DNA from: a virus
IMG/VR virus record: IMGVR_UViG_3300009550_000043
Span: 1 to 30,437 of that record
Length of the DNA: 30,437 bases
Strand: one strand, 5' to 3'
Made by a program: the position numbers and the translations under genes. The notes below the pieces were generated by a model. It was not told the DNA's origin. It searched no databases and worked only from the letters and a program-made list of their open reading frames with translations. The stretch's first letter is position 1, and every line of letters starts with the position of its first letter. Positions 11,349 through 29,674 of this stretch are shown here, one piece after another.

Positions 11349-11929
11349 TTAAAGAATAACTCCAGTTTTGCTTTATCTTTTGCTTTCTTTTTCTCTTCTT
11401 TTGCAAAGGTATTAATTGCTTGGTCTTTCTTTCTAACCTCACCAATTCTAGCTTTTAATGTATCAACATATGCCATTGTTTCTTGTGCAGTTTCACCATC
11501 CATACCAGCTTGTACAAAATCGTCAATACCCATTTTCTCAATGAATTTAAACTTAATCTCTTGTTGTTTCTTTTCTTTCATTATTCTACGTATAAATGCA
11601 TAATAACATATTTGTGTAAAATAAGAAAAAGCGTTTGGTTTTCCTGTCCTTGTAGCAGTTTCTATATTATAATTACCAATAGCTCTTAAGCAATTTTCTA
11701 CAGCATCCATAACCATTTCTTCTCTATAAGTATATCTTACAAAGTTTGGTCTGTGGGATAATCCTTCTGAAATTTTTATAAAACATCGAGCGATGTAATC
11801 TGTGACTTTTGGTACTTCTTTATTTTTTTCTCTTAAATCTCTGCATTCAACAGCATAGTCCATGACTGCTTCAGAGAATTCGCGATTGTTGACGTAATGA
11901 GCCTTTTCTTTAGGCTTTAATTTTGCCAT
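11345..11929 (-). CDS. 55: late-transcription sigma factor gp55
   Basis: 194 aa (T4 gp55 is 185). It shares the YVNNREF start, the ISEGLSHRPNF-YTYREEMVMDAVENCLRAIGNY region (sigma region-2-like) and the PNAFSYFTQICYYAFIRRIMKEKK segment. gp55 directs host RNA polymerase to TATAAATA late promoters and touches the gp45 clamp through its C terminus; here the last residues are LELFFK, a hydrophobic tail that fits such a clamp contact. Several exact TATAAATA sites in the window are its expected targets. It is the first gene after its own sigma70-like promoter and has a strong GGAGG ribosome site. Confidence 0.94.
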   Translation of the reverse strand: MAKLKPKEKAHYVNNREFSEAVMDYAVECRDLREKNKEVPKVTDYIARCFIKISEGLSHRPNFVRYTYREEMVMDAVENCLRAIGNYNIETATRTGKPNAFSYFTQICYYAFIRRIMKEKKQQEIKFKFIEKMGIDDFVQAGMDGETAQETMAYVDTLKARIGEVRKKDQAINTFAKEEKKKAKDKAKLELFFK

Positions 11930-11951
11930 AGGTTTTCCTCCATAATTATCT

Positions 11952-11980
11952 ATTATATCACATTTCTGCGTAAAAGTAAA
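11952..11980 (-). promoter_or_regulatory. sigma70-like promoter of gp55-47-46
   Basis: Minus strand: -35 TTTACT (11975-11980), 17-bp spacer, extended -10 TGATATAAT with TATAAT at 11952-11957. It faces away from the plus-strand promoter at 12016-12044, with an A/T-tract between the two. Confidence 0.75.
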
Positions 11981-12015
11981 CTGTTATTTATTTAAAAAAA
12001 AAATGAAAAAAACAG

Positions 12016-12044
12016 TGTACAAATCCTAGTTTTTATGATATAAT
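12016..12044 (+). promoter_or_regulatory. plus-strand sigma70-like promoter (antisense)
   Basis: Plus strand: -35 TGTACA (12016-12021), exactly 17 bp, extended -10 TGATATAAT with TATAAT at 12039-12044. It has the same form as the gp43 and gp45 promoters. The expected start is near 12051. No plus-strand gene follows, so the transcript would be antisense to the Sm-like gene and possibly uvsW. A weak ATCC/GGAT hairpin with a T-rich tail follows near 12110-12130. Confidence 0.6.
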
Positions 12045-12078
12045 AATATAGTACCCCAGGGAGGGAGAGTATACAAAA

Positions 12079-12474
12079 TTAGTGTATGGTATAATCTTTA
12101 TCCTTGAGGATTCTTTCTTCATCATATCGATCCATTAGTTCTTCTTCTAATTCTTTCATGATTTGAATGTCGGATTTAGGAGAAGGAACTGGCCTTCTTC
12201 TTTCATTTAACTTTAAAGCAAAGTCAATGTAAGCTTCTTTCACATCCTCAGCAACTTGAACATGACTTAAAATAGTTCTCTTTAGAACTTTAAAAGCTTT
12301 TGTTTCTGAGAATGGAAACCATGGAGTAAATTGGAATCCACCTATAAGATTACTTGTTATAACCAAAGGTCTTTCGATTATATAAGAATCATCGTTTTTC
12401 ACTGAACATAGTGCGATAATTTCTTCGCCATTCATTAGCTTAAAGTGTCTTATGTTTAGTTCCTTTACTTCCAT
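12079..12474 (-). CDS. Sm-like (LSm-type) phage protein, 131 aa
   Basis: 131 aa. The N-terminal part HFKLMNGEEIIALCSV, then IIERPLVI, the FTPWFPFSE motif and LSHVQVAEDVKEAYIDFALKL resemble a small beta-barrel (Sm-like) family that is common in marine T4-like phages. The C-terminal 35 residues are charged and probably helical. Sm-like folds often bind RNA, but for this phage family that has not been shown to my knowledge. It starts one base after the uvsW stop. A TATAAATA lies only 6 nt before the ATG and no ribosome site is visible. Its 3' end faces the antisense promoter. Confidence 0.8.
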   Translation of the reverse strand: MEVKELNIRHFKLMNGEEIIALCSVKNDDSYIIERPLVITSNLIGGFQFTPWFPFSETKAFKVLKRTILSHVQVAEDVKEAYIDFALKLNERRRPVPSPKSDIQIMKELEEELMDRYDEERILKDKDYTIH

Positions 12475-12475
12475 A

Positions 12476-13969
12476 TTATATATTTATATCATGCAGATTG
12501 TAATCAAACTTTTCTTTGGAATATATTTTAATTCTTTCAGCTGCATGGTTGAGTGTATAGTTTTTCCTTGACTTCCAATGTAAATCATCAGCTATGTCAA
12601 AGACCTTAGTATTTCTACCGTCCGGAGATTTCCTCAAACCTCTTCCTATTGATTGTAGGACTCTAATTTGAGATTTACTAGGACTTGCAAAAACAATATT
12701 GTGAAGACGCTTAATGTTAATACCAGTAGAAAAGGTACCAAGAGAAGCCACAATAATTGCATTGTCCTCTTTTTCAGTAATTGCACGGGTATCTTCTCTG
12801 CTATCAACATCGGTTTCTCCAGATACATAGAATAGTTTTCTATCATCTTTTATTTTTTCCTTTAATAAATTGTGTAATGGTTTTCCATGCTTTTCAACAT
12901 AATTAAATAATACTAATGTATTACCTTCTAGGTCTAAAGCCAGGTTAGCTATAAAGTTATTTCTTGGTTGATATCCTACTATAAAATCTATCTCTTCCTG
13001 ATAATCTCTTTGTACTTTACAGTATTCATCTTTATATTTTAATAATAACATATCGATACTTAACTTAGCAAGAGTATCATCATCCATTAATTGTTTTGTG
13101 GTTGTGACTTTATGTACAGGTCCAAATAAACCTTCCAATACTAATTGATGTGTTTGAGTACCATCTAACGTACCAGTACATCCTATACGATATTCAGCTT
13201 CAGTACATTTTTCCATAATTGATGTTAATGATTTAGCTTTAAACTGATGAGCTTCATCTCCAACAACCATACCAAACCTTTGATACCATTGTGGCCCTAA
13301 TTTATAAATCGATTGCCAGGTAGATATTATAACTCTATTCCTTATATTATCTCTATCTGCTCCACCATATACTTTATAACATAATTCGTCGTTATTAAAT
13401 GTATCATCTTGTGAAGAATACTCAGCAAAGTCAGAGTACATCTGCTCAACCAATGATGTGGTGGGTACTATTATTAATACATCATCTTTACAGTAATCTA
13501 AATACCATTTAATTGCCAGATATATAATCAGACTCTTGCCTGAGGCCGTAGGTGATAATAGTAATCCATTCTTATTCTGTAATGTGCACGACAGTGCATC
13601 TAGTTGATAGTTCCTAGGTATTATCCTATTACCTGCACCAGAAATCACCAGAGGGTCCAAAAAGGCTTTTAGGTCAATATTTTGAGTTTCACCCAAATTA
13701 CCGTAGCCCGCAGATGCGGCTGTTATAACCTTGTAGCCCCTCACTTCTGCGAACTCTTTTAAATATTTGAATAAACCGTTATATAAAGTTTGTCTTTTAT
13801 AATCATAAAGTCTTATCTTTCCATCCCACATACGATTACGGTATGCTGGCATAAATTTATAACCTGGAACGAAAAAACAAAAATGTTCGGACAATTCTTT
13901 CTCAATGCCCTTATCACATGATACGTACATAAACGTTTCATTCATTTTTGCTACTTTAATTACATCCAT
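12476..13969 (-). CDS. uvsW: RNA-DNA and DNA helicase UvsW
   Basis: 497 aa. Superfamily 2 helicase motifs: PTASGKS (motif I, 140-146), IVPT (Ia), GDEAHQF (motif II, DEAH at 238-241), CTGTLDG (motif III), and QSIGRGLRKS (motif VI, about 443). The N-terminal portion has the PGYKFMPAYRNRMWDGKIRLYD segment typical of UvsW. It unwinds R-loops and branched DNA and promotes the shift from origin- to recombination-primed replication. In T4 it is a late gene; a TATAAATA lies 54 bp upstream, inside the previous gene. It overlaps the glycosyltransferase-like gene by 10 bp. Confidence 0.95.
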   Translation of the reverse strand: MDVIKVAKMNETFMYVSCDKGIEKELSEHFCFFVPGYKFMPAYRNRMWDGKIRLYDYKRQTLYNGLFKYLKEFAEVRGYKVITAASAGYGNLGETQNIDLKAFLDPLVISGAGNRIIPRNYQLDALSCTLQNKNGLLLSPTASGKSLIIYLAIKWYLDYCKDDVLIIVPTTSLVEQMYSDFAEYSSQDDTFNNDELCYKVYGGADRDNIRNRVIISTWQSIYKLGPQWYQRFGMVVGDEAHQFKAKSLTSIMEKCTEAEYRIGCTGTLDGTQTHQLVLEGLFGPVHKVTTTKQLMDDDTLAKLSIDMLLLKYKDEYCKVQRDYQEEIDFIVGYQPRNNFIANLALDLEGNTLVLFNYVEKHGKPLHNLLKEKIKDDRKLFYVSGETDVDSREDTRAITEKEDNAIIVASLGTFSTGINIKRLHNIVFASPSKSQIRVLQSIGRGLRKSPDGRNTKVFDIADDLHWKSRKNYTLNHAAERIKIYSKEKFDYNLHDINI

Positions 13970-14859
13970 AATATATTTTGAATTCTTAGTTTAGTTGTCT
14001 CAACATCTGTACATAAATATCTATTTATATACCAATGAATAAACATCTCGTTTTCCTTATGGCTGTACCATGAGATATCTCTTATAGCACTCTTTAAGTG
14101 TGGTAATGTTTGTATTTTTTCTGTGACCCAATGATATTCAGGAAATCCATAAGATATAATAGGAACGTTATGCATCATACATTCTATACCTGCGGTACTA
14201 TTTTCTAGTACAGCTACGCGCGCGTGTGGGAGCACGTCATGTATACTCACGTAATCGGTTATAACTGTAATATCCCTTTCCTTCCATTTTTCTATTTCCT
14301 TTGCTCTCATTTGGATATCCCTATCCATGGCTGGGTGTAATTTAACTACGATAGGTGTATCTTCTATAGCATTTACTATTTGACTTAATTTTCTCCAATG
14401 GTCTCCAAATCCAAATCCATTTACTGTTTCATCGTGTGGCTGTTGACCTATTATTAATATATGGTCTTCAGGTATTTTTACTTTTGGTTTACGCCATTTA
14501 AGTAATATTGATTCATCCCATTTATTTGATTTTTTATCTATAAGTTCTCGTATATATTCTTTCTCGCCTTTATAATTCATTTGATAATCAAAAGGATTCA
14601 TCCACTCAGGTTCTATATATGCCATCTTAGAATCATTAGCATATCCCCAAGTATCTAAAGCAAAATGTTTATTAGTTGGAGCAGTTGGTTTTATTATAAT
14701 AGTATTATCAGTTCTTGGCCAATTTGATATATGATTATAGAAATTTAATTCAGCTTCATCACTAGTTTCTGTATGTCCTAGTTCATTCATAGCAGTACGA
14801 ACGATATTCTCGTATCGAGTCATATTAGTAAATTTGTATTGGTGTATCTTATATTCCAC
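13960..14859 (-). CDS. capsule-polysaccharide/glycosyltransferase-like protein
   Basis: 299 aa. The C-terminal half has features of capsule-synthesis (KpsC/KpsS-like) and CDP-glycerophosphotransferase-type GT-B enzymes: ILIIGQQPHDE, then VVKLHPAMDRD, and the donor-site-like ENSTAGIECMMHNVPIISYG. The N-terminal half includes FYNHISNWP and KHFALDTWGYAND. It could add a sugar to phage DNA, phage structural protein or host surface glycan; the sequence does not tell which. It lies between uvsY and uvsW, overlapping both (11 and 10 bp), an unusual place for such an enzyme. A TATAAATA within its 3' end may drive uvsW. Confidence 0.78.
   Translation of the reverse strand: MEYKIHQYKFTNMTRYENIVRTAMNELGHTETSDEAELNFYNHISNWPRTDNTIIIKPTAPTNKHFALDTWGYANDSKMAYIEPEWMNPFDYQMNYKGEKEYIRELIDKKSNKWDESILLKWRKPKVKIPEDHILIIGQQPHDETVNGFGFGDHWRKLSQIVNAIEDTPIVVKLHPAMDRDIQMRAKEIEKWKERDITVITDYVSIHDVLPHARVAVLENSTAGIECMMHNVPIISYGFPEYHWVTEKIQTLPHLKSAIRDISWYSHKENEMFIHWYINRYLCTDVETTKLRIQNILWM
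14023..14030 (-). promoter_or_regulatory. possible late promoter for uvsW
   Basis: TATAAATA on the minus strand inside the end of the glycosyltransferase-like gene, 53 bp before the uvsW ATG. T4 uvsW is expressed late, which makes this copy plausible, but in AT-rich coding DNA such matches also arise by chance. Confidence 0.4.
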
Positions 14860-15295
14860 TGGTAAACTTACGCCACTCTATCATGTTCTTAATGGTTTGA
14901 TGTCTCCATTTAACATTATCTAATATTTCTTTGAGTGTATCACATATCTCTTGCAGATATGCTATCTTAGCCTGTGCTTCTTGTATGTCTTTATCAGAAT
15001 CATAGAATTTATCCATATCACCTTTGAGTATAGTTAATCCATTCAATGGGTCATAATCCCATCCATGTTTATCTATATCTTCTTGAGATAACTTACCATT
15101 ATAATGCAACCATTTCTCTTTAAGTAATACCTTAAATTCAAGGTCAGCTTTTTTCAGCTTCATTCTATTGGCTGATAAAATTTCTAAGTATTTTCCGTGT
15201 AGTTTTGCAGAATCTCGAGAGGATTCATCTAAAGCCATTTCATCAATGACTGAATCCTTTTTCCACATATCTAGTATAGTTTGTAAATTATTCAT
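14849..15295 (-). CDS. uvsY: recombination mediator UvsY
   Basis: 148 aa (T4 UvsY 137). All-helical composition with matching landmarks: LHGKYLEILSANRMKLKKAD near residues 32-51, KWLHYNGKLSQEDID, LKGDMDKFYDSDKDIQEA and a C-terminal IKNMIEWRKFTSG, which parallels the T4 ending IKHIQDMRAFEAG. UvsY loads UvsX recombinase on gp32-covered single-stranded DNA. It sits directly after a sigma70-like promoter whose -10 box ends 8 nt before the ATG, with no Shine-Dalgarno, so it may be translated from a leaderless mRNA. Confidence 0.9.
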   Translation of the reverse strand: MNNLQTILDMWKKDSVIDEMALDESSRDSAKLHGKYLEILSANRMKLKKADLEFKVLLKEKWLHYNGKLSQEDIDKHGWDYDPLNGLTILKGDMDKFYDSDKDIQEAQAKIAYLQEICDTLKEILDNVKWRHQTIKNMIEWRKFTSGI

Positions 15296-15303
15296 ATCTA
15301 TAT

Positions 15304-15336
15304 ATTATAACACAGTTTTACGAAAAAGTAAACTGT
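15304..15336 (-). promoter_or_regulatory. sigma70-like promoter with inverted repeat, uvsY
   Basis: Minus strand: -35 TTTACT (15327-15332), 17-bp spacer, extended -10 TGTTATAAT (TATAAT at 15304-15309). A perfect inverted repeat ACAGTTT/AAACTGT (15312-15318, 15330-15336; 11 bp apart) overlaps it, in the same position as those at cobS and the VWA operon but with CAG instead of CCG in the arm. Confidence 0.75.
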
Positions 15337-15810
15337 TTATTCAAATTCAAAGTTTGTGTATGAGAATGTTATATCGCATGTAAGGTAATTGACACCTTCT
15401 GCTGTTGATGTAAATTCTAAGGCTCCTAAAGATGTAGGAAATATATCCTTAAATCTAATTGTTTTATTAACATTATTATGAGATGTAAATACTAATAGTA
15501 CTGCATCTTCTTTTAAATCTTCAGCTTCCTTTCCAGTTTGTGATTGGAGATTATGCATCCAATTAAATGTTTCTAAATAGTTATCAAAGTTTTCAGTTAT
15601 TTGAACTGTTAAATTAAAATCACCAAACTTTAATCTACTACCTGTTGCATCAAAATCCAATGTTTTATAATTCAAAGGTTGTGGGTCTAAAGATACTGAC
15701 GGTAAGCTTACCGTTGTAGCAAAATATTCTAAATTAGGATATCTTAAGCTATTGATTTTTAATTGAAATCCAGTAGGACTTAAATAGTTTATATTAGTTG
15801 TTAATGCCAT
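15337..15810 (-). CDS. virion structural protein with tail-tube-like features
   Basis: 157 aa. The pattern FATTVSLPSVSLDPQPLNY, then LKFGDFNLTVQITENFDNYLETFNWMHNL, and a C-terminal FTSTAEGVNYLTCDITFSYTNFE echoes gp19-type tail-tube proteins (compare gp19: KASKMPDSTIEQITVPFRG then FSDWSTTIINDTD-VRNDLEKW). I infer a tail-tube or baseplate-hub protein of that fold, perhaps gp48/gp54-like, rather than tube itself, because gp19 is encoded separately at 20897. It lies between gp23 and uvsY, separated from gp23 by a terminator. A TATAAATA only 5 nt before the ATG and no ribosome site suggest a leaderless late transcript. Confidence 0.78.
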   Translation of the reverse strand: MALTTNINYLSPTGFQLKINSLRYPNLEYFATTVSLPSVSLDPQPLNYKTLDFDATGSRLKFGDFNLTVQITENFDNYLETFNWMHNLQSQTGKEAEDLKEDAVLLVFTSHNNVNKTIRFKDIFPTSLGALEFTSTAEGVNYLTCDITFSYTNFEFE

Positions 15811-15815
15811 ATAGT

Positions 15816-15823
15816 TATTTATA
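15816..15823 (-). promoter_or_regulatory. late promoter immediately before the 157-aa gene
   Basis: TATAAATA on the minus strand in a noncoding gap right after the gp23 terminator, 5 nt before the ATG. It shares the longer string TATAAATAACTATA with the gp20 late promoter. Confidence 0.6.
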
Positions 15824-15840
15824 ATGATTTAAATGCTAAA

Positions 15841-15871
15841 CAAAAGAAAAGGGACCCCGAAAGGTCCCTTT
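15841..15871 (-). terminator. strong Rho-independent terminator after gp23
   Basis: Minus strand: 9-bp stem AAAGGGACC/GGTCCCTTT (15863-15871 with 15848-15856), 6-nt loop, followed by a T-rich tail (TTCTTTTG). It begins about 21 bp after the gp23 stop, as expected for the most strongly expressed structural gene. Confidence 0.85.
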
Positions 15872-15892
15872 AAAATGAGTGTTAACTCTGGC

Positions 15893-17233
15893 TTACACCA
15901 TTATGTCATCAACTCTGAAGATTCTGAAGTATTGGTTGCTTCTATCTGAACCGATAGTACCATCAATAGCTACATAAGGGTTAGCAATCATGCCGTACCT
16001 TGTTTTGAATCCCATTCTTGGTTGGAAATCATTCTCACCAACGGCTTTAACCATTGTTAGTGGAACGTATGGGCAGTAGAATAAACCTGCGTCATATGGG
16101 TTTGCACCTCTATAACCAACACAAACGAAGTCAACTGTTGCATAAGGATCGATGTAAACTTTAACTCTACCATTTAGTAATCCAGCGAATGTATTACCAG
16201 TATCGTCAACGTTTAAATCAACTGAAAGAGCAGGTGTGTAGTCTAAAAGACCAGCAGCTGCTAAAGCTGAAGCTACGTCTGAAGAACAGATAACAAAATT
16301 ACCTTTTCCACGTCTTGTTTCTTTAGCGATAACATTACATTCTCTTTCAATCTGCATGATTAAGCCTTTAAATCTCTCAACCATCCATCTTCCGTCTGAA
16401 TCAGTGTTTACATCAAAAATACCACTTACAGCAGTAGATGTTTGTAAAGCACCAATTTTAGCAGTTTTAAGGATAGACCTTACAACTTCTCTATTGATTT
16501 CAGCTAATATTTCAGCTGAAAGGATGTTAGCCAATTCGCCTTCAGCATCCAATCCGTGGATTGCTTTAAGGTCTTGTGCTAATTCCATTGTGTACTCAGC
16601 TTTTAAAGCTCTTGACTTAGCTGTGACTGTAGCTTTCTCGATTGTGAAAGCCATTTCACCGAATGAACCGTCTCCAGATTCACCAACACCTAATCTTTCA
16701 GCAGCGGCTGTGGATAAACCAGAACCGAATGTTGAAACAGTGTCAGCTGTATCTGCGATTGAACCGTCAGTGTCAGCATCAGTAACGCCTAGTAGACCTG
16801 TTGGGTCAGCTTGGTGAGTACCTGTACCTGAAAAATCAGTATCAGCTTCATCAAAGAATGCTTCTGATCCAGATTGTGAGGTATATTTTGATTTCATTGC
16901 AAAGATTAAGCCTGTTGGTCCACTCATAGGTTGAACTCCAGCTACATCATAAGCGATGAGGTTTGGCATTGCACGTCTTACTAAAGAAATCAATACTGGG
17001 TCAAAAGTTCCAATGTTATTTGGAGCTGAACCTGAACCAATGTTGTTAGCTGCAGCAGCCTCAGAAATGAAATTTCCTTGTGCTTGAGCTCTTTCTTCTT
17101 GTAATGCAACTTCCTGGTTTTCTAACAATCTAGCTGTGACAGCTTTCTTGTATTTACTTTGGATTGGGTCTACACCATCATGGTCTAGAACAGGACCCCA
17201 TTTTTCCATTAAGTTTGCGTCTGCATTAAACAT
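15893..17233 (-). CDS. 23: major capsid protein gp23
   Basis: 446 aa (T4 521). Contains the region EKWGPVLDHDGVDPI near the N terminus, the LVRRAMPNLIAYDVAGVQPM segment, and the C-terminal MIANPYVAIDG..NQYFRIFRVDDI typical of gp23. T4-like gp23 is processed by the gp21 protease after an (I/L)-x-E site; FISE at residues 55-58 followed by AAAA fits, which would remove about 58 residues. HK97-fold capsid lattice protein. It follows gp22 with 18 bp between and an AAAGGGG ribosome site. No exact TATAAATA is found directly upstream, so it is probably read from promoters before gp67 or gp20. Confidence 0.97.
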   Translation of the reverse strand: MFNADANLMEKWGPVLDHDGVDPIQSKYKKAVTARLLENQEVALQEERAQAQGNFISEAAAANNIGSGSAPNNIGTFDPVLISLVRRAMPNLIAYDVAGVQPMSGPTGLIFAMKSKYTSQSGSEAFFDEADTDFSGTGTHQADPTGLLGVTDADTDGSIADTADTVSTFGSGLSTAAAERLGVGESGDGSFGEMAFTIEKATVTAKSRALKAEYTMELAQDLKAIHGLDAEGELANILSAEILAEINREVVRSILKTAKIGALQTSTAVSGIFDVNTDSDGRWMVERFKGLIMQIERECNVIAKETRRGKGNFVICSSDVASALAAAGLLDYTPALSVDLNVDDTGNTFAGLLNGRVKVYIDPYATVDFVCVGYRGANPYDAGLFYCPYVPLTMVKAVGENDFQPRMGFKTRYGMIANPYVAIDGTIGSDRSNQYFRIFRVDDIMV

Positions 17234-17251
17234 TTTTTTATTCCCCTTTAT

Positions 17252-18397
17252 TTAAGAAATGTGTTTATTAATAGCTTGAGTATATCTAGCCATTGATTCT
17301 GAAACTACTGATTCATCAGCATTATCTTCACCAAGTAAACTATCTACTTCATCAGCTGATTCGTTAACTTCACTTTTAAAGTATGAACTCTTAATTGTAG
17401 ATACTTTTGTTTGGAAAGTATCTTCGTCTTCGAATTCAACATCTTCTACTAATGATGCTAGTTTTTCAGCTTCTGTTTCTGCAAGCCCTGAAGATTGTTC
17501 TCTTACTATTTCTTGTTTTCTGTATTCAGAAACCTTAGAGTGTAGATCGATATTATCTTCTGTGGTTTTATTTAAAATTCCTTCAAGCTCATTAACTTGT
17601 TCGTTGAGTTCATCAACTAAGTCAACTTTACCTTCTGGAACTTCGATGTAATGTTCTGTGAACACTTTCTGAAGTGAAGTCATAAATTCTTCAGCAATTT
17701 CAGTCCTAAGACCAGAACTTACTGCTAGTTCATTTTCTTTCATCCAATTTTCTACTACGTAGTCAAGATAACCATTTACCTTTTCTACCATATCATTTTG
17801 AATTTCAGATACTTCTTCTTCAAGATTTGAAGCATATTCAGACTCTAGTCTGTCAACTTCTTGTGTTAATTTTGAAGTTAACACTGCTTCGAAGATTGTC
17901 CCTGCTTTTACTTTAAAGCTATCTGACAATGTAGCCTCTTCAGCGATAAGGATATCTAAATCTTCATCGAAATCTGCTGATTCAACTTTAGCTTTAACCA
18001 CTTCTCCATGTTTGGAGTCGCCTTTCCCAGCTTTTGGGTCTTTGGCTTGTTTTGGTTTAACTGCGTTTTCAGCATCTTTCTCTGTTTTTATAGATTCTTC
18101 TTCCTCACCAGCTTCATCGACTTTAATCATTTTAGCAAAAAGCTTTTGGGCATCTTCTTTTTTAGCTTTCTTGAGCATCTCTACAGCAGCTTGAATTGTT
18201 CCAGCTTTAGTTTTCGGAATATTCATTTTCGGTGCTTCTTCTTTCTGCACGTCTTCTTCATACTCTTCTTCTTTTGCTTTATTCTTAGCAGCTTCTTCGA
18301 TAGTTTCGTCTTCAGAAACGGATGTTTCCTCTACTTGACTCTCTTGAAGTTGCTCTTCATCTACCATAGGCTCTTGATTTAAAATCTCTTCTGACAT
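17252..18397 (-). CDS. 22: prohead core scaffolding protein gp22
   Basis: 381 aa, longer than T4 gp22 (269). Very acidic and mostly helical: an E/K-rich N-terminal third, then alternating helices such as TQEVDRLESEYASNLEEEVSEIQNDM and a C-terminal SESMARYTQAINKHI that matches the usual gp22 ending. It forms the inner scaffold of the prohead and is degraded by gp21. Position between gp21 and gp23 is the T4 order. The extra length lies mainly in the low-complexity N-terminal part. Confidence 0.93.
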   Translation of the reverse strand: MSEEILNQEPMVDEEQLQESQVEETSVSEDETIEEAAKNKAKEEEYEEDVQKEEAPKMNIPKTKAGTIQAAVEMLKKAKKEDAQKLFAKMIKVDEAGEEEESIKTEKDAENAVKPKQAKDPKAGKGDSKHGEVVKAKVESADFDEDLDILIAEEATLSDSFKVKAGTIFEAVLTSKLTQEVDRLESEYASNLEEEVSEIQNDMVEKVNGYLDYVVENWMKENELAVSSGLRTEIAEEFMTSLQKVFTEHYIEVPEGKVDLVDELNEQVNELEGILNKTTEDNIDLHSKVSEYRKQEIVREQSSGLAETEAEKLASLVEDVEFEDEDTFQTKVSTIKSSYFKSEVNESADEVDSLLGEDNADESVVSESMARYTQAINKHIS

Positions 18398-18398
18398 T

Positions 18399-19070
18399 TT
18401 ATATTCCCCTATTATTTTGAGAGTTTATTTTAGAGAGGAAATTTTTAAAAGCTCTAATCTCTACCTCAGGTAGATTCTTAGATTTGGTGCTTTTAATTTC
18501 AGTCTCAATTAATTCAATATCTTGCGGTGCAAGAACGCCATTATCCCATACCCATTCAACACCTTCCATAACTCCATTTACAAATGCACTTGGAGCTGAA
18601 GGGTCTTGAACTATATCTATAGTAGATAACATAAAGTCATCCCCCACGTATTGTGCGCCCTTTTTCGATACAAGACTTCCCATACCACGACTTGATACAC
18701 CAAGCTTAACACCACCTTCGAGTAGTCCTTCGACTATTTTTCCCATAGGGGTTTTAAGAATTGATGCTTTTCCTACAACATCATTTCCCTGCCATTGCAG
18801 CGAATTAATTTTGTGTGAAACTTTATCCAGGTTTACAGTTGGTCCTTCCGGATGATTTAGTTCTCCAACTGCTCTGCCTGTTTTAACTTGTTCGGCTATA
18901 TACTTATCTACGGCTTTTTCCATAACAGCCTTTTCGTATACACGACCATTTTTGTTCTTTTTCTCGGATTGCATGAAAACGCCTTCAATAAAATAATCTT
19001 TGCCACCATCTTTCTTGGCTTCGATTAAAATATCTAGGTCGTTATCTACAAACTCAGTTATTAATCTCAT
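18399..19070 (-). CDS. 21: prohead protease gp21
   Basis: 223 aa (T4 212). Serine-protease motifs of the herpes/T4 assembly-protease type: GELNHPEGP with the catalytic His at 73, and LGVSSRGMGS with the catalytic Ser at 126 or 127; the segment FMLSTIDIVQDPSAPSAFV is typical. It cuts gp22, gp67 and gp23 during head maturation. It overlaps the gp67-like gene by 17 bp. Confidence 0.96.
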   Translation of the reverse strand: MRLITEFVDNDLDILIEAKKDGGKDYFIEGVFMQSEKKNKNGRVYEKAVMEKAVDKYIAEQVKTGRAVGELNHPEGPTVNLDKVSHKINSLQWQGNDVVGKASILKTPMGKIVEGLLEGGVKLGVSSRGMGSLVSKKGAQYVGDDFMLSTIDIVQDPSAPSAFVNGVMEGVEWVWDNGVLAPQDIELIETEIKSTKSKNLPEVEIRAFKNFLSKINSQNNRGI

Positions 19071-19269
19071 CTTGAGCTATTTCTCCTTCCATTTCAGAAG
19101 GCTCTTCTACAGCTACAGCCGGTTCTTGACCTGCCATAGTAGGTGCTAATTCTATTTTCTTAGCATCTAATACAGCCTGTAATTTTTGTGCCATTACAGT
19201 ATCATAGGCTTTTCCAGCTGCGACAGTATCGCCATCTTTTAGGTTTTGTACTAAATTTTCAACGCTCAT
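19054..19269 (-). CDS. 67: prohead core protein, gp67/gp68-like
   Basis: 71 aa. The N-terminal VENLVQNLKDGDTVAAGKAYDTVMAQKLQAVLDAKK parallels T4 gp67 (LIEAIKSNDLVAARKLF..AMAARTIDLIKEEK), followed by an acidic tail rich in E. It lies between gp20 and gp21 as gp67/68 do in T4. A minor component of the prohead core. It has an AGAGG ribosome site and its own late promoter. Some marine phage annotations call this gene gp68; the motif fits gp67 better. Confidence 0.82.
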   Translation of the reverse strand: MSVENLVQNLKDGDTVAAGKAYDTVMAQKLQAVLDAKKIELAPTMAGQEPAVAVEEPSEMEGEIAQDEINN

Positions 19270-19288
19270 AATTTACTTACCTCTATTT

Positions 19289-19296
19289 TATTTATA
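19289..19296 (-). promoter_or_regulatory. T4-type late promoter for gp67-21-22-23
   Basis: TATAAATA on the minus strand in the gap after gp20, giving a leader of about 15-20 nt before the gp67 ATG at 19269. Confidence 0.7.
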
Positions 19297-19313
19297 ATAT
19301 TTTATATTCTAAC

Positions 19314-20840
19314 TTAATTAAATCTTGGGTCATCTGGGTCTGGCATATCCAGCTCTCCAGCTTTATCCTCAGAATCAATTTGCTTTTGAATGTTTTCAAT
19401 TTCTTCTTCACTGAATCGCAGTACGTTCTTTCTTACCCATTCATTGGATATATAAGTACCTACATACTCATCGAGGGAACTCAACATTTCAAATCTTTCT
19501 CTTATCATTTCAGATTGTTTTAACTCAGAAAAATAGTTATCTTCAATATAATCGAAGGTTATTGAATTTTTCCAGTTATTCCAATCTTCTCTGGTAATAA
19601 TACCTTTTAACAAGAGTTGTGTTTTAAGTAGTTGCATGAATAAATCAGAGAATCTTTTTCTTAATCTGTCAATAAACTTCTTAAACTTAATTTCATCTCT
19701 GGTTATTTCAGTTGTTCTACCTAAACTAAACTGTGCTTCTTGTTCCAATCTATTTAAAGGAACGTTTAAAGCTTTATATAGTTTCTTTTGGAAATATAAG
19801 ATATCATCTATTTGACCTAGGTTTTCTCCACCTGGTAAGGTTGATATCTCAGTACCTCTTCCACCTTCTCTTCTTGGTAGGAAGAAATCTTCCAACATTG
19901 ACATATGTTTTTTATCATCTTTGATATCGCCAGTCTTAGCGTCATATACCAATTTATTTCTATACTGTTGCATTATACCACGTAAGTAATCTTCTGCTTT
20001 TCCTTTTGGTAAATTACCTACATCGATATAAAATATTCTTCTTTCTGGAGCTCTTGATATTCTATAGATTACCAATGAGTCTTCCATCATTCTTAACTGG
20101 TTTACTGGCTTTAAAGCCTTTTGTAAATATGAAAGTATTCTTTTTCTACTTGGGTCCATTACACCTGAAGTACAGTATGCAATTGCATCAGGTTTAATCT
20201 TTAATCCCTGATTGTATTTACCCATTGCGTTATCCTGGTACATAAAGTATTCTTCTACTTTCTTAATTATTTTTGCACCAGTCTTTTGGTCAGTTTCTTC
20301 TTCTACTTATTTGACCTTTCTTAATTTTGTTGGATCGATATATCTTAATTCTTTTATTCCGCCTTTAAGATTTTCATTATCTACTACGATATGATATGGT
20401 AATCTACCATCAACGTACCATCTTCTAAATATGTCATGTGCATACTGTCCAAAACTTAACATTGATAAAACATTATCAAATTCATGTCTCATCATTTCTT
20501 TTATCTTATCGGATATATCTAATTCATCTAATATAATATTAATAGGAGCCTCATCATGGTCTCCTACTATTGATTCATTTACGATATCTTCAATCGCGGC
20601 GTCACATTCTGGTTGAGATGCAATGTCTCTATATTTTAACATCATATCTATGTCTGATTTTGCTTTATCTCCATCTACATCTAGATATGCTCCAAAATGA
20701 CCACCGGCTTGTATTACACCTGCACCATCCTCATCCGTTTTAGTAACGAAGGAAGGTCTATCAGGTTTTTTGCTTTTGTCTTTAGCTCGGGTTATCTCAA
20801 ACCCAAACATTTGAATTCCGCCTTTTTTATCTTCTGCCAT
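19314..20840 (-). pseudogene. 20: portal protein gp20, interrupted by an in-frame TAA
   Basis: The gp20 frame runs 509 codons from ATG 20840 to the stop at 19314 (T4 gp20 is 524 aa), but codon 178 is TAA (20307-20309). The first part (177 aa) ends IDPTKLRKVK; the same frame continues at once with VEEETDQKTGAKIIKKVEEYF and the rest of the portal. Nothing else is damaged: both sides keep portal motifs (MEDSLVIYRISRAPERRIFYIDVGNLPKGKAE, REGGRGTEISTLPGG, SLGRTTEITRDEIKF). The portal is the dodecameric DNA entry ring and is essential in T4, so the stop is either a sequencing or assembly error, a real point mutation, or a readthrough site. An ATG 21 codons later (20243) has no good ribosome site. 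Other genes here use TAA as a normal stop, so general reassignment is unlikely. Confidence 0.88.
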
Positions 20841-23197: not shown

Positions 23198-23205
23198 TAT
23201 TTATA
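23198..23205 (-). promoter_or_regulatory. T4-type late promoter for gp18-gp19
   Basis: TATAAATA on the minus strand in the 81-bp gap between the RimK-like gene and gp18. Confidence 0.7.
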
Positions 23206-23210
23206 ATATT

Positions 23211-24641
23211 TTAGTCTTTAGTGTAAGCGTCATCTTTACCGGCATAATCGCTAACTACGAATTTTCGGTTTGGATGTACTGAGACCCTCAATTTGGTCAT
23301 AGTTTTACGATTAACTAACATTTCAGATGCAGTATCTTTCTCAGTTAACCCTAATTCTATTACATATTTTCTATTATTAAAAGTAATTCCATGTTCTACA
23401 ACAGGTCTTGTATCAAAATCTTTCTTACCTCTTTTAGGTTCGGATATATCTACTATCTCGCTTTCAAACTTTAATCCATTCTTTTCCCATTTAGCCATAT
23501 CACCATCAACTTCTAATTTATCTACATGTAGCATAGTTGCTGAGGCTGAATTACCTGTATCAAACTTAGCTCGAATAAGATTGTTTTCCATTCCATCTAG
23601 TTTGATTGATTCAATGAATCCTACTTCTTTTCTCATCATAGGTCTTCTATTTTCTTCTAATAATAACCTATCAATAACTTTTCCAAGTACTAATTCATCT
23701 TTTATTTTCTTAGTTGGTTCACCTTCTTCGTCATATCCCATAAAATGAGAACGAATACCAGGTGAACCATTTACTTCAAGTACATATATATTCTTACCAA
23801 TTTTACAATGGTCAACACCACAATATACAGCACCAGATGTTCTGGCTGCTTCTACAATTACGTGTTTTTCTTCATCGGTTAAAACATAAGGCTCTGTATC
23901 GGCTCCTAAATGTACATTATTTCTAAATTCTTTTGTGTCTCTTTTAATTCTTTCAGCTGCTCCAATGATTTCTCCATTTACTACAAGAGTTCTTATATCT
24001 GATTTAATATCAAAAAATTCTTGTATTAAAAGGTCAGCATCAAATTTCCATAATGATTGACAAACTGATGTTAAGGATGCCATATCATTTACTTTCGATA
24101 CACCAACACCCTGTGTACCTGTTAATGTTTTTATAATTACTGGGAATTTACCACCAACTCTTTTATGAGAATCTTCAATTGATTTAACATTATTCACAAT
24201 TGCTGTTCTTGGAATTGGTACATTATTTCTTTCTAATGCTAATGATGATGCCATTTTATTATCACATAATAACATAGATTCTAAATCATTAACTAAGAAA
24301 AATCCGATTGTTTGCATAGATGATACTAAGGCTTGTGCTGTCATTGATTGTATAGCTCCGGCCCTTACAAATATAATTGAGTTATGTATATTTACAGCAA
24401 TACTAGTATCCTCACCATCTATATTTCTTAATTTAACTTCACCAATTTCAACATCCGATGATGTAATATAAGCTTCAGTAATATCAACAAGAGTATGTTT
24501 TATTCCTCTCTTCTTAGCAACTTTCTGAATTAAATCCGCAAAGGTTCCTTCCTCATCACTAAGGCCAAGTACAACTATTTCAAGCTCGCTAGGCTTGAGC
24601 TCTTCTTCTTTTTCTACTAAAAATTCTGTGAACCTTTCCAT
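23211..24641 (-). CDS. RimK-like ATP-grasp ligase fused to a RimB/retropepsin-like domain
   Basis: 476 aa. Residues about 20-330 form a RimK-type ATP-grasp ligase: DNKMASSLALERNNVPIPRT, VIIKTLTGTQGVGVSKV (nucleotide-binding Lys and glycine-rich loop), GVDHCK and the metal-binding LEVNGSPG (288-295). Residues about 338-476 resemble the retropepsin-like "ATP-dependent zinc protease" family (PF05618, RimB-like): IRAKFDTGNSAS with D361-T-G, then FDTRPVVEHGITFNNRKYVIELGLTEK and MLVNRKTM. RimK adds glutamates to protein C termini (ribosomal S6 in bacteria) and RimB-type proteins are encoded with RimK in some bacteria; here both are one chain. It lies between gp17 and gp18, overlapping gp17 by 25 bp. 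Substrate unknown: ribosome or virion protein are both possible. Confidence 0.88.
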   Translation of the reverse strand: MERFTEFLVEKEEELKPSELEIVVLGLSDEEGTFADLIQKVAKKRGIKHTLVDITEAYITSSDVEIGEVKLRNIDGEDTSIAVNIHNSIIFVRAGAIQSMTAQALVSSMQTIGFFLVNDLESMLLCDNKMASSLALERNNVPIPRTAIVNNVKSIEDSHKRVGGKFPVIIKTLTGTQGVGVSKVNDMASLTSVCQSLWKFDADLLIQEFFDIKSDIRTLVVNGEIIGAAERIKRDTKEFRNNVHLGADTEPYVLTDEEKHVIVEAARTSGAVYCGVDHCKIGKNIYVLEVNGSPGIRSHFMGYDEEGEPTKKIKDELVLGKVIDRLLLEENRRPMMRKEVGFIESIKLDGMENNLIRAKFDTGNSASATMLHVDKLEVDGDMAKWEKNGLKFESEIVDISEPKRGKKDFDTRPVVEHGITFNNRKYVIELGLTEKDTASEMLVNRKTMTKLRVSVHPNRKFVVSDYAGKDDAYTKD

Positions 24642-26233
24642 ACTCTCTCTTCAAACCAAATATTTCCATCTTGGTCTCTAGTATATTTATTAGCGTTAAC
24701 ATTCTCCTCTGTGGTAAATCCAAATGGAAGCATGTCATCTTGTATTTCTTTTAACCTTTCCTTATATAACATATTTTTCATATCAATATTAGTTAATGAT
24801 TGGAATACATCAGTTGTAGTAAACCAAGCAAATAAAACTAAGTTCATCATTAAATCATCGTGGTTAGGTGCTATAGCCATAAATGAACTTCCCCTTGAAA
24901 CAAAGGTACTCATTTCAACTATAGTTTGTGCATCATATATAATCAGCTTATTCTGCTCAATCAGGTCTTTTATACCTGAGCATCCAATACGCTTAACTCT
25001 TCTAGTCATTGTCACACCAATCGCGTTGGCTTTAATACTAGATTCAACAAACACGTTTTCATATTCTAAATCATAATATAAACCATTACAAACTACAGCA
25101 CCTTGGTCATTACTTTCCACCACAACGTAAGCTTCATTATATAAGTTGGCATACTTATATATAATATCAGGTAATAGCATCGGAGATATATTATTATCTC
25201 TAAATACAGCTACCTGCTCAAAAGGCGTAGTGCTTACATCGATTATATTAAATGTACTATAATCTTGATTTCTACCCTTCGATACATCCACGGTCATAAT
25301 ATACTCATGTTCCTTAACAGGATTTTTGTATATTAAACACCTTTCATTTACAAACTCTGGGTCTACACTTTTTTGGCTCAATAAAGCATCAGCCGCTATG
25401 AGTGTATTCCCTCGCCCATGGAAAGTATTACCAAATTCTTGTTCGAACTGTAATTTGGATGTATTATTTACAGTTTGTTCTTTCCATTTTTCATCTCTTC
25501 CTGGTACATCCCACCAATCCACTCTAAAAGATTTAAAGTCATTTGTTTTTTGTACCGCACCCTCCCAGAGTTTATGATAAACATTACCTATCCCGTTTGC
25601 TGTTGAGCAAATAATGATTTGAGTATCTTTACCTGCTGTCACAACTGGATAAGTAGAAGTATAGAATTGTGCATCGTTATCTACAAATGCAAACTCATCT
25701 AGGAAAAGAAGATTAACTGACAAACCCCTAATGGAACTTGCAGATGTAGCATTAGCCACAATCTTTGAGTTATTACTAAACTCTATACTTCCCTTATTCA
25801 AAGCCTTACATCCTGGTTGAAGAAAGTAAGGCAAATTTTCTAATGCTAACGTTATCCTTGCTAACATTTCTCTTGCAATGGCTCCTTTATTAGCTAATAT
25901 AGCAATTGTTTTCTCTGGGTGAAAACACGCATACCATAAAAGATATACCACTGATGATATTGATTTACCACTTTGTCTGCAAGCTAAAACAATACTAAAT
26001 CTATTATCATTAAAATGTTTAAACATCTTTTCTTGATATGGATATAATTCAAATGGAACTAATCCTTCATCAAGAGATATTATCTTTACATATTCTCTTG
26101 CAAAATAAGATGGGTCTTTCATACACTTTTTATATTCGAGTACTTCTTCTTTCGTAAAAGAAGTTTCAACTCCATCTCTTTTTACGAGGTGATTACCTAA
26201 ATAACCAAACTCGTTATTTTTGACTCTCTGCAT
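24617..26233 (-). CDS. 17: terminase large subunit gp17
   Basis: 538 aa (T4 610). ATPase motifs: YPYQEKM upstream, Walker A CRQSGKS (85-91), Walker B LLFLDEF (175-181) and the coupling CSTANG. The C-terminal RNase H-like nuclease shows MTVDVSKGRNQD, VVESNDQGAV and NHDDLMMNLVLFAW with its acidic residues. It pumps and cuts DNA at the portal. It overlaps gp16 by 20 bp upstream and the RimK-like gene downstream. Confidence 0.97.
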   Translation of the reverse strand: MQRVKNNEFGYLGNHLVKRDGVETSFTKEEVLEYKKCMKDPSYFAREYVKIISLDEGLVPFELYPYQEKMFKHFNDNRFSIVLACRQSGKSISSVVYLLWYACFHPEKTIAILANKGAIAREMLARITLALENLPYFLQPGCKALNKGSIEFSNNSKIVANATSASSIRGLSVNLLFLDEFAFVDNDAQFYTSTYPVVTAGKDTQIIICSTANGIGNVYHKLWEGAVQKTNDFKSFRVDWWDVPGRDEKWKEQTVNNTSKLQFEQEFGNTFHGRGNTLIAADALLSQKSVDPEFVNERCLIYKNPVKEHEYIMTVDVSKGRNQDYSTFNIIDVSTTPFEQVAVFRDNNISPMLLPDIIYKYANLYNEAYVVVESNDQGAVVCNGLYYDLEYENVFVESSIKANAIGVTMTRRVKRIGCSGIKDLIEQNKLIIYDAQTIVEMSTFVSRGSSFMAIAPNHDDLMMNLVLFAWFTTTDVFQSLTNIDMKNMLYKERLKEIQDDMLPFGFTTEENVNANKYTRDQDGNIWFEERVWKGSQNF

Positions 26234-29666: not shown

Positions 29667-29674
29667 TATTTATA
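29667..29674 (-). promoter_or_regulatory. T4-type late promoter for gp13-14-15-16-17
   Basis: TATAAATA on the minus strand, 5 bp after the stop of the fibre-like gene and about 23 bp before the gp13 ATG. The genes downstream overlap or nearly touch as far as the RimK-like gene, so one late transcript probably covers all. Confidence 0.72.

What the first reader, a model, noticed from the sequence alone, without database searches (positions are those of the whole stretch)
23211..24641. Writer and possible eraser in one chain: RimK ligase fused to a RimB-type retropepsin domain
Seen: a full ATP-grasp module followed by a DTG-containing domain with RPVV..I..N.R.Y.IEL.L motifs. Known: RimK adds glutamates to protein C termini, and RimB-type (PF05618) proteins are encoded with it in some bacteria. 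Inference: the phage could remodel S6 or tag a virion protein, then trim it. The location between gp17 and gp18, in the late virion transcript, points to a late target. Candidate tails in this window with acidic C termini include the 89-aa protein and the gp67-like protein.
Basis: partly seen in the sequence, partly recalled or inferred. Interest (0 to 1): 0.8.

Follow-up and report, generated by a model that had tools for sequence, protein, structure and literature searches.

The report
Phage enzyme predicted to be injected
A marine T4-like phage gene encodes one chain that joins an enzyme for adding amino acids to protein ends with a protease of the type that trims them, and its first ten residues match the T4 tag that loads proteins into the phage head, so it may be injected with the DNA to modify host proteins.

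Summary
The 476-aa ORF lies on the minus strand (24641 to 23211), between gp17 and gp18. It is a RimK-family ATP-grasp ligase (PF08443, 3e-36) followed by a RimB-type retropepsin (PF05618, over cut-off). Structure prediction gives a retropepsin fold nearest RloA and Lpg0085. Candidate catalytic residues are invariant across 16 diverse relatives. RimK-RimB fusion itself is known, in the reverse order, in bacteria (RimBK, JBC 2025); a ligase-first fusion also occurs on a haloarchaeal plasmid.

The new element is the N-terminus, MERFTEFLVE. It matches the T4 capsid-targeting sequence (MKTYQEFIAE) at the four residues shown in T4 to control targeting (4, 7) and gp21 processing (8, 10). The strict form occurs in 55 of 71 gp17-linked relatives, in 78 of 78 complete Mosig-type proteins at another locus, and in no other window gene. 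A distant relative, YerA41 gp066, is annotated as a virion protein in a phage with a published particle proteome.

Best reading: a late-made enzyme packed in the head and injected, a protein-modifying counterpart of T4 Alt. Ribosomal protein S6 is the leading but unproven target. Packaging, activity and target are untested.

The parts
23211..24641 (-). RimK-RimB fusion gene, 476 aa, last gene of the gp13-gp17 block
24612..24641 (-). Residues 1-10 MERFTEFLVE, capsid-targeting-like sequence; F4, F7, L8 and E10 match the T4 residues that matter; predicted gp21 cut after E10
   Evidence: processing not tested
23748..24263 (-). RimK-type ATP-grasp core, residues 127-298, with K129, K171, E208, R217, R240, N242, D277, E289, N291
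   Evidence: Pfam; invariant in alignment A1; fold
23256..23624 (-). RimB-type retropepsin-like domain, residues 340-462
   Evidence: Pfam; PDB profile hits; fold
23553..23561 (-). DTG catalytic motif, residues 361-363 (DTGN in place of the DTGA seen in cellular RimB-like proteins)
24617..26233 (-). gp17 large terminase; its last 25 nt overlap the start of the fusion gene
23198..23205 (-). TATAAATA, T4-type late promoter motif of gp18, after the end of the fusion gene
   Evidence: present in 51 of 54 distinct gaps in relatives against 5 of 480 control windows
29667..29674 (-). TATAAATA before gp13, nearest upstream late promoter candidate for the gp13-gp17-fusion block
18399..19070 (-). gp21 prohead protease, the enzyme expected to remove the targeting sequence
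   Evidence: named by order and similarity; relatives
15893..17233 (-). gp23 major capsid protein with an ISE/A site, showing that the T4-type cleavage rule is kept in this lineage
   Evidence: 18 of 20 relatives

Best explanation
This is a two-domain protein-modifying enzyme that the phage makes late, packs inside its own head and injects with the DNA. Shown by computation: a RimK-family ATP-grasp ligase joined to a RimB-type retropepsin domain, with active-site residues intact across the family. Inferred: residues 1-10 act as a T4-type capsid-targeting sequence that draws the protein into the prohead core; gp21 then clips it after Glu10, leaving it in the mature head for delivery at the next infection. 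Inferred with less certainty: in the new host the ligase adds glutamates to a protein C-terminus and the retropepsin limits, trims or stimulates this, as RimB does to RimK. Ribosomal protein S6 is the leading candidate target. Since the phage makes the protein late but would use it early, it resembles T4 Alt in logistics while using different chemistry.
For: Domains: Pfam; folds; invariant catalytic residues. Targeting sequence: 55 strict and 16 relaxed of 71 distinct gp17-linked proteins; among 33 distinct strict 12-mers position 4 is F in 32 and Y in 1, position 7 F or Y, position 8 mostly L, position 10 E, while positions 9 and 12 vary freely (the search pattern itself required these classes, so the strict count is what informs). 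Those positions are the ones mapped in T4 IPIII (PMC9026906). Independent retention at another locus: 78 of 78 complete Mosig-type N-termini. Specificity: the pattern finds T4 IPII, IPIII and 61.1 plus two other T4 genes, only this gene in Mosig and only this gene among 32 window genes. A related phage contig has 9 of 127 proteins with the motif at the N-terminus against 0.30 expected from internal density, among them PAP2, nucleotidyltransferase-like and acid phosphatase B proteins. The gp21 site ISE/A is kept in gp23. The distant relative YerA41 gp066 is annotated as a structural protein, and 63 particle proteins of that phage were identified by LC-MS/MS (PMC7354516).
Against: No proteomics of any phage in this clade. 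YerA41 gp066 lacks the motif, and I could not read the supplementary table behind its annotation. Residue 11 is Lys or Asp here while T4 IPII and IPIII have Ala, so processing may differ. The L070-L081 lineages lack the strict motif. In G002 the motif is not significantly enriched (2 of 146, P 0.06). The ligase scores far below the curated S6-ligase model (89.5 of 331 bits) and just below the RimK subfamily cut-off (142.1 of 143.4), and three of the six poly-glutamate contacts considered from Pseudomonas RimK are changed, so the acceptor need not be S6. DTGN replaces DTGA in the protease.
Confidence: 0.6

Rival explanations
1. It acts inside the cell that makes it, late in infection: it polyglutamylates and trims host S6 to retune translation for the virion burst, and is not packaged.
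For: Placed after gp17 in the late gp13-gp17 block. Four of four large related contigs and Mosig encode bS21, and bS21, bS18 and bS6 share the 30S platform in Bacteroidia (PMC9976891).
Against: Does not explain a conserved targeting motif at two separate loci. Free-standing cyanophage RimK proteins lack the motif. bS21 is core to pelagimyophages anyway (PMC7029224), so it is not specific support.
Confidence: 0.2
2. It modifies a prohead or virion protein during assembly; the N-terminal motif docks it to the scaffold so that it can glutamylate or cut head proteins.
For: Late block, core-targeting motif, acidic runs in scaffold gp22, RimB cuts runs of six or more Glu (PMC11957791).
Against: No head protein in the window ends in a Glu tract. 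The gene sits in unrelated places in relatives and homologues exist in cells, so a dedicated virion substrate is not expected.
Confidence: 0.12
3. The ligase domain is a small-molecule or general peptide ligase of the ATP-grasp family rather than an S6 ligase, and the retropepsin domain is a regulatory part with no protease activity.
For: Higher score for the MptN model (121.8) than for the S6-ligase model (89.5); changed poly-Glu contacts; DTGN in place of DTGA. RimB is also known to stimulate RimK (PMC11957791).
Against: Best structural matches are RimK proteins, not small-molecule ligases; the DTG aspartate is invariant across 47 sequences; the partner domain is the one that works with RimK in bacteria.
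Confidence: 0.15
4. The N-terminal motif is a by-product of the 25-nt overlap with gp17 and has no targeting role.
For: Most copies overlap gp17 by 25 nt, which constrains codons 1-8.
Against: Glu10 lies beyond the overlap and is kept; members with 4 nt or no overlap keep MKLFNNFLEE; the Mosig type is next to regA and keeps the motif in 78 of 78.
Confidence: 0.05

Closest known systems
RimBK hybrid enzyme (Desulfotalea psychrophila DP2392; J Biol Chem 2025, PMC11957791)
   Same: RimK ligase and RimB retropepsin in one chain; the published hybrid cuts polyglutamylated S6.
   Different: There RimB is at the N-terminus; here it is at the C-terminus. The published hybrid is bacterial and no capsid-targeting sequence is reported.
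RimK with separate RimB (Pseudomonas rimABK; adjacent rimK-rimB in Vibrio)
   Same: Same two domain families; in Vibrio the same gene order, ligase then protease.
   Different: Separate proteins in cells; DTGA motif in the protease.
Haladaptatus plasmid protein WP_227778482
   Same: Ligase first, retropepsin second, one chain of 438 aa with both Pfam domains.
   Different: Archaeal plasmid; no targeting motif; annotated only as RimK family ligase.
RloA and RloA2 (PDB 9g58, 9g59; mBio 2025, PMC12239564) and Lpg0085 (2pma)
   Same: Nearest solved relatives of the C-terminal domain by profile and by fold.
   Different: RloA enzymes have signal peptides (predicted periplasmic or extracellular) and are single-domain proteins, with about 20-27% identity to this domain.
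T4 internal proteins IPII, IPIII and Alt
   Same: Late-made head contents; IPII and IPIII carry the same type of N-terminal sequence; Alt is an injected protein-modifying enzyme.
   Different: None of these is an ATP-grasp ligase or a retropepsin; Alt is an ADP-ribosyltransferase and its N-terminus does not fit the strict pattern.
Yersinia phage YerA41 gp066
   Same: Full RimK-RimB order, PF08443 and PF05618 over cut-off; annotated structural protein.
   Different: 30% identity; no targeting motif; different gene context.
Cyanophage S-RIM8, S-RIM12, S-RIM32 'S6 glutaminyl transferase' (phrog_2599)
   Same: Phage RimK-family ligase.
   Different: No RimB domain and no targeting motif.

Membership tests
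RimK (ribosomal protein S6 alpha-L-glutamate ligase) | RimK ATP-grasp domain PF08443 over curated cut-off | tested here: met
   125.1 bits against 21
RimK (ribosomal protein S6 alpha-L-glutamate ligase) | Subfamily TIGR00768 and S6-ligase equivalog NF007764 over curated cut-off | tested here: not met
   142.1 of 143.4 and 89.5 of 331 bits
RimK (ribosomal protein S6 alpha-L-glutamate ligase) | Nucleotide-site and catalytic residues (Lys, Glu, Arg, Asp, Asn) conserved | tested here: met
   Invariant in 16 relatives
RimK (ribosomal protein S6 alpha-L-glutamate ligase) | Poly-glutamate contacts of Pseudomonas RimK (R8, S14, R64, S68, R189, N262) | tested here: inconclusive
   R64, R189, N262 kept as R93, R217, N291; R8, S14, S68 changed, by one pairwise alignment to a Vibrio RimK
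RimK (ribosomal protein S6 alpha-L-glutamate ligase) | Adds glutamate to the S6 C-terminus | not testable with these tools
   Needs an enzyme assay
RimB-type retropepsin (PF05618) | PF05618 over cut-off | tested here: met
   32.6 and 37.6 bits against 27; 16 of 16 members match
RimB-type retropepsin (PF05618) | Retropepsin-like fold | tested here: met
   2pma, 9g59, 9g58 then HIV proteases
RimB-type retropepsin (PF05618) | Catalytic DTG | tested here: met
   80 of 80 Mosig-type loci, found with patterns that did not include DTG; also invariant in the 47 domains of A3, though those were collected by a DTGN pattern
RimB-type retropepsin (PF05618) | Extended DTGA motif of RloA, Lpg0085 and Vibrio RimB | tested here: not met
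   DTGN throughout
RimB-type retropepsin (PF05618) | Dimeric protease active on poly-Glu | not testable with these tools
   Needs an enzyme assay
RimBK hybrid | RimB and RimK in one chain | tested here: met
RimBK hybrid | RimB at the N-terminus, as described | tested here: not met
   RimB is C-terminal; description PMC11957791
T4 capsid-targeting sequence proteins | N-terminal sequence of about 10 residues with targeting residues 4 and 7 and processing residues 8 and 10 | tested here: met
   F4, F7, L8, E10
T4 capsid-targeting sequence proteins | T4-type prohead protease rule present in the same phage | tested here: met
   gp21 homologue and ISE/A in gp23
T4 capsid-targeting sequence proteins | Protein found in the virion and clipped | not testable with these tools
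   Only indirect: YerA41 gp066 annotation

The most novel reading that the evidence does not exclude
A widespread class of marine T4-like phages carries a tagged cargo set in the head, including a writer-eraser enzyme for protein C-terminal glutamylation that is injected with the genome and resets the host ribosome (S6) or another host protein in the first minutes of infection, taking the role that Alt-type ADP-ribosyltransferases have in T4.
Probability: 0.35. Interest if true: 0.85.

Novelty: new variant of a known kind. Interest (0 to 1): 0.62.

Why it matters
Pelagimyophages are reported to lack alt, modA and modB (PMC7029224), so how such phages seize their hosts early is open. A packaged ligase-protease would be an injected effector with new chemistry, in phages represented by hundreds of ocean contigs. 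The targeting motif gives a sequence-only way to list candidate injected proteins in marine T4-like phages, and the claim can be checked by virion proteomics of a cultured phage (Mosig).

Tried and rejected
Acidic C-terminal tails as substrates: no window protein ends in a Glu tract. A phage-encoded S6 as target: none in four large related contigs. bS21 co-occurrence as evidence for S6: found in 4 of 4 but set aside, since bS21 is core to pelagimyophages. A cellular origin from close relatives: the genome scan found one hit, a phage-like contig in an archaeal MAG that appears to be the same sequence as viral contig L074. YerA41 relatives in viral contigs: none. The C-terminal domain alone finds nothing by tblastn in phages or plasmids. 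The apparent full-length Vibrio 'fusion' turned out to be two adjacent genes. Overlap with gp17 as the cause of the N-terminal motif: rejected by Mosig-type genes. Literature on marine capsid-targeting sequences or phage RimK-RimB fusions: nothing found in the open-access library. The host was not determined.

Full report
What is there. The ORF is on the minus strand, from 24641 down to 23211, and lies between the terminase gene gp17 and the tail sheath gene gp18. It starts inside the last 25 nt of gp17. Pfam places a RimK ATP-grasp domain at residues 127-298 (E 3.3e-36) and PF05618, the RimB family, at 340-462 with 32.6 bits against a curated cut-off of 27. Sixteen diverse C-terminal domains all match PF05618. 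A profile of those domains matches only three distinct sequences in the PDB: RloA2, RloA and Lpg0085. AlphaFold2 on the C-terminal domain (47 sequences, pLDDT 83, pTM 0.74) gives a fold whose nearest solved neighbours are the same proteins, followed by HIV proteases and Ddi1. The full-length model is of moderate quality (pLDDT 74), but its best matches are RimK crystal structures.

Conservation. In 16 full-length relatives down to 46% identity, K129, K171, E208, R217, R240, N242, D277, E289, N291 and the DTG at 361-363 are invariant. The Mosig-type relatives, found with patterns that do not include DTG, have DTGNS in 80 of 80. One change is consistent: the residue after DTG is Asn, where solved relatives and Vibrio RimB have Ala.

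Distribution. A first scan of viral contigs gave 87 relatives, mostly between gp17 and gp18. A profile scan gave at least 563, and a scan with the Mosig protein gave 221. These sets were not checked for overlap. Other contexts are regA to gp43 (Mosig and the L070 group) and rows of genes with targeting-like N-termini (L067, L081). The bacterial and archaeal genome scan, which sees close relatives only, returned one hit, a phage-like contig in an archaeal MAG. A ligase-first fusion also exists on a Haladaptatus plasmid; Vibrio has the two as adjacent genes.

The overlooked feature. The N-terminus MERFTEFLVE resembles the T4 capsid-targeting sequence MKTYQEFIAE. In T4 IPIII, residues 4 and 7 mainly direct targeting, and residues 8 and 10 direct processing by gp21 (PMC9026906). 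The window protein has F, F, L and E there. Among 71 distinct gp17-linked proteins with a complete start, 55 have the strict form and 16 a relaxed form. Because the relaxed pattern is permissive, only the strict count carries weight. Among strict members, positions 9 and 12 vary freely. Overlap with gp17 cannot explain it: Glu10 lies outside the overlap, members with almost no overlap keep it, and Mosig-type proteins beside regA keep it in 78 of 78 complete starts.

Controls for the motif. In T4 the pattern finds IPII, IPIII and 61.1, plus mrh.1, trna.3 and a short ORF that is not a gene. In Mosig it finds one annotated gene, the RimK-RimB gene. In the window it finds only this gene of 32. In a 103-kb related contig (G001) it is at the N-terminus of 9 of 127 proteins where 0.30 are expected. 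Those include PAP2, a nucleotidyltransferase-like protein, an acid phosphatase B-like protein and DUF6267. In a second contig (G002) the excess is not significant (2 of 146). The regular expressions were written after seeing the sequences, so the enrichment should be read as descriptive; the T4 residues were mapped independently.

Expression. TATAAATA, the T4 late promoter motif, lies in the gap before gp18 in 51 of 54 distinct relatives against 5 of 480 control windows. None lies just before the fusion gene, and the nearest upstream one precedes gp13. The gene is thus the last of a late block (inference from T4 transcription). For a packaged protein this is the expected timing.

Packaging evidence from outside. 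YerA41 gp066 is a distant full-length relative, annotated as a structural protein. The phage paper reports 63 particle proteins by LC-MS/MS and suggests that particle enzymes are injected (PMC7354516). I could not open the supplementary table, so the link from annotation to peptides is inferred. gp066 does not carry the motif.

Target. S6 is the natural candidate, since RimB and RimK act on it in Pseudomonas (PMC11957791). Caution is due: the ligase fails the curated S6-ligase cut-off, and three of six poly-Glu contacts known in Pseudomonas RimK differ. bS21 is encoded by all four large relatives and by Mosig, but it is core to pelagimyophages in general (PMC7029224), so this is context and not proof.

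Verdict. The new claim, that it is a head-packed and injected enzyme, rests on a specific, conserved and independently mapped motif, and is testable with one proteomics run.

Noticed in passing
G001 (parent contig of L024), 11896-20476, 34047-34652 and 101123-102559: Nine proteins with T4-type targeting N-termini, including PAP2, DUF6267, nucleotidyltransferase-like and acid phosphatase B-like proteins: a candidate set of head-packed cargo.
   Followed up: partly
L067:5373-7925: One open frame of at least 851 aa joins a targeting-like start, a nucleotidyltransferase-like part and RimK-RimB, with the RimK-RimB targeting-like sequence still visible inside.
   Followed up: no
L017:12892-13368 and L028:5577-6053: A 158-aa protein between gp20 and gp21, in the prohead core gene block, begins with the same type of motif.
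   Followed up: no
window 19314-20840: The portal gene gp20 reads as two ORFs in the window, while the otherwise near-identical contig L004 has it as one; possibly a sequencing or assembly difference.
   Followed up: no
G001-G004: All four large related contigs encode ribosomal protein bS21 and none encodes S6.
   Followed up: partly
L252:2737-4053: Haloarchaeal plasmid protein with RimK followed by a retropepsin domain, annotated only as RimK family ligase.
   Followed up: partly
L094:3827-4705 (S-RIM8): Free-standing cyanophage RimK lies less than 1 kb upstream of gp17 in S-RIM8, without RimB or targeting motif.
   Followed up: no
Melnitz phages, L003:82-1131: OM43 phage RimK with a targeting-like start (MTQKFSQFITEE) but no RimB domain.
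   Followed up: no
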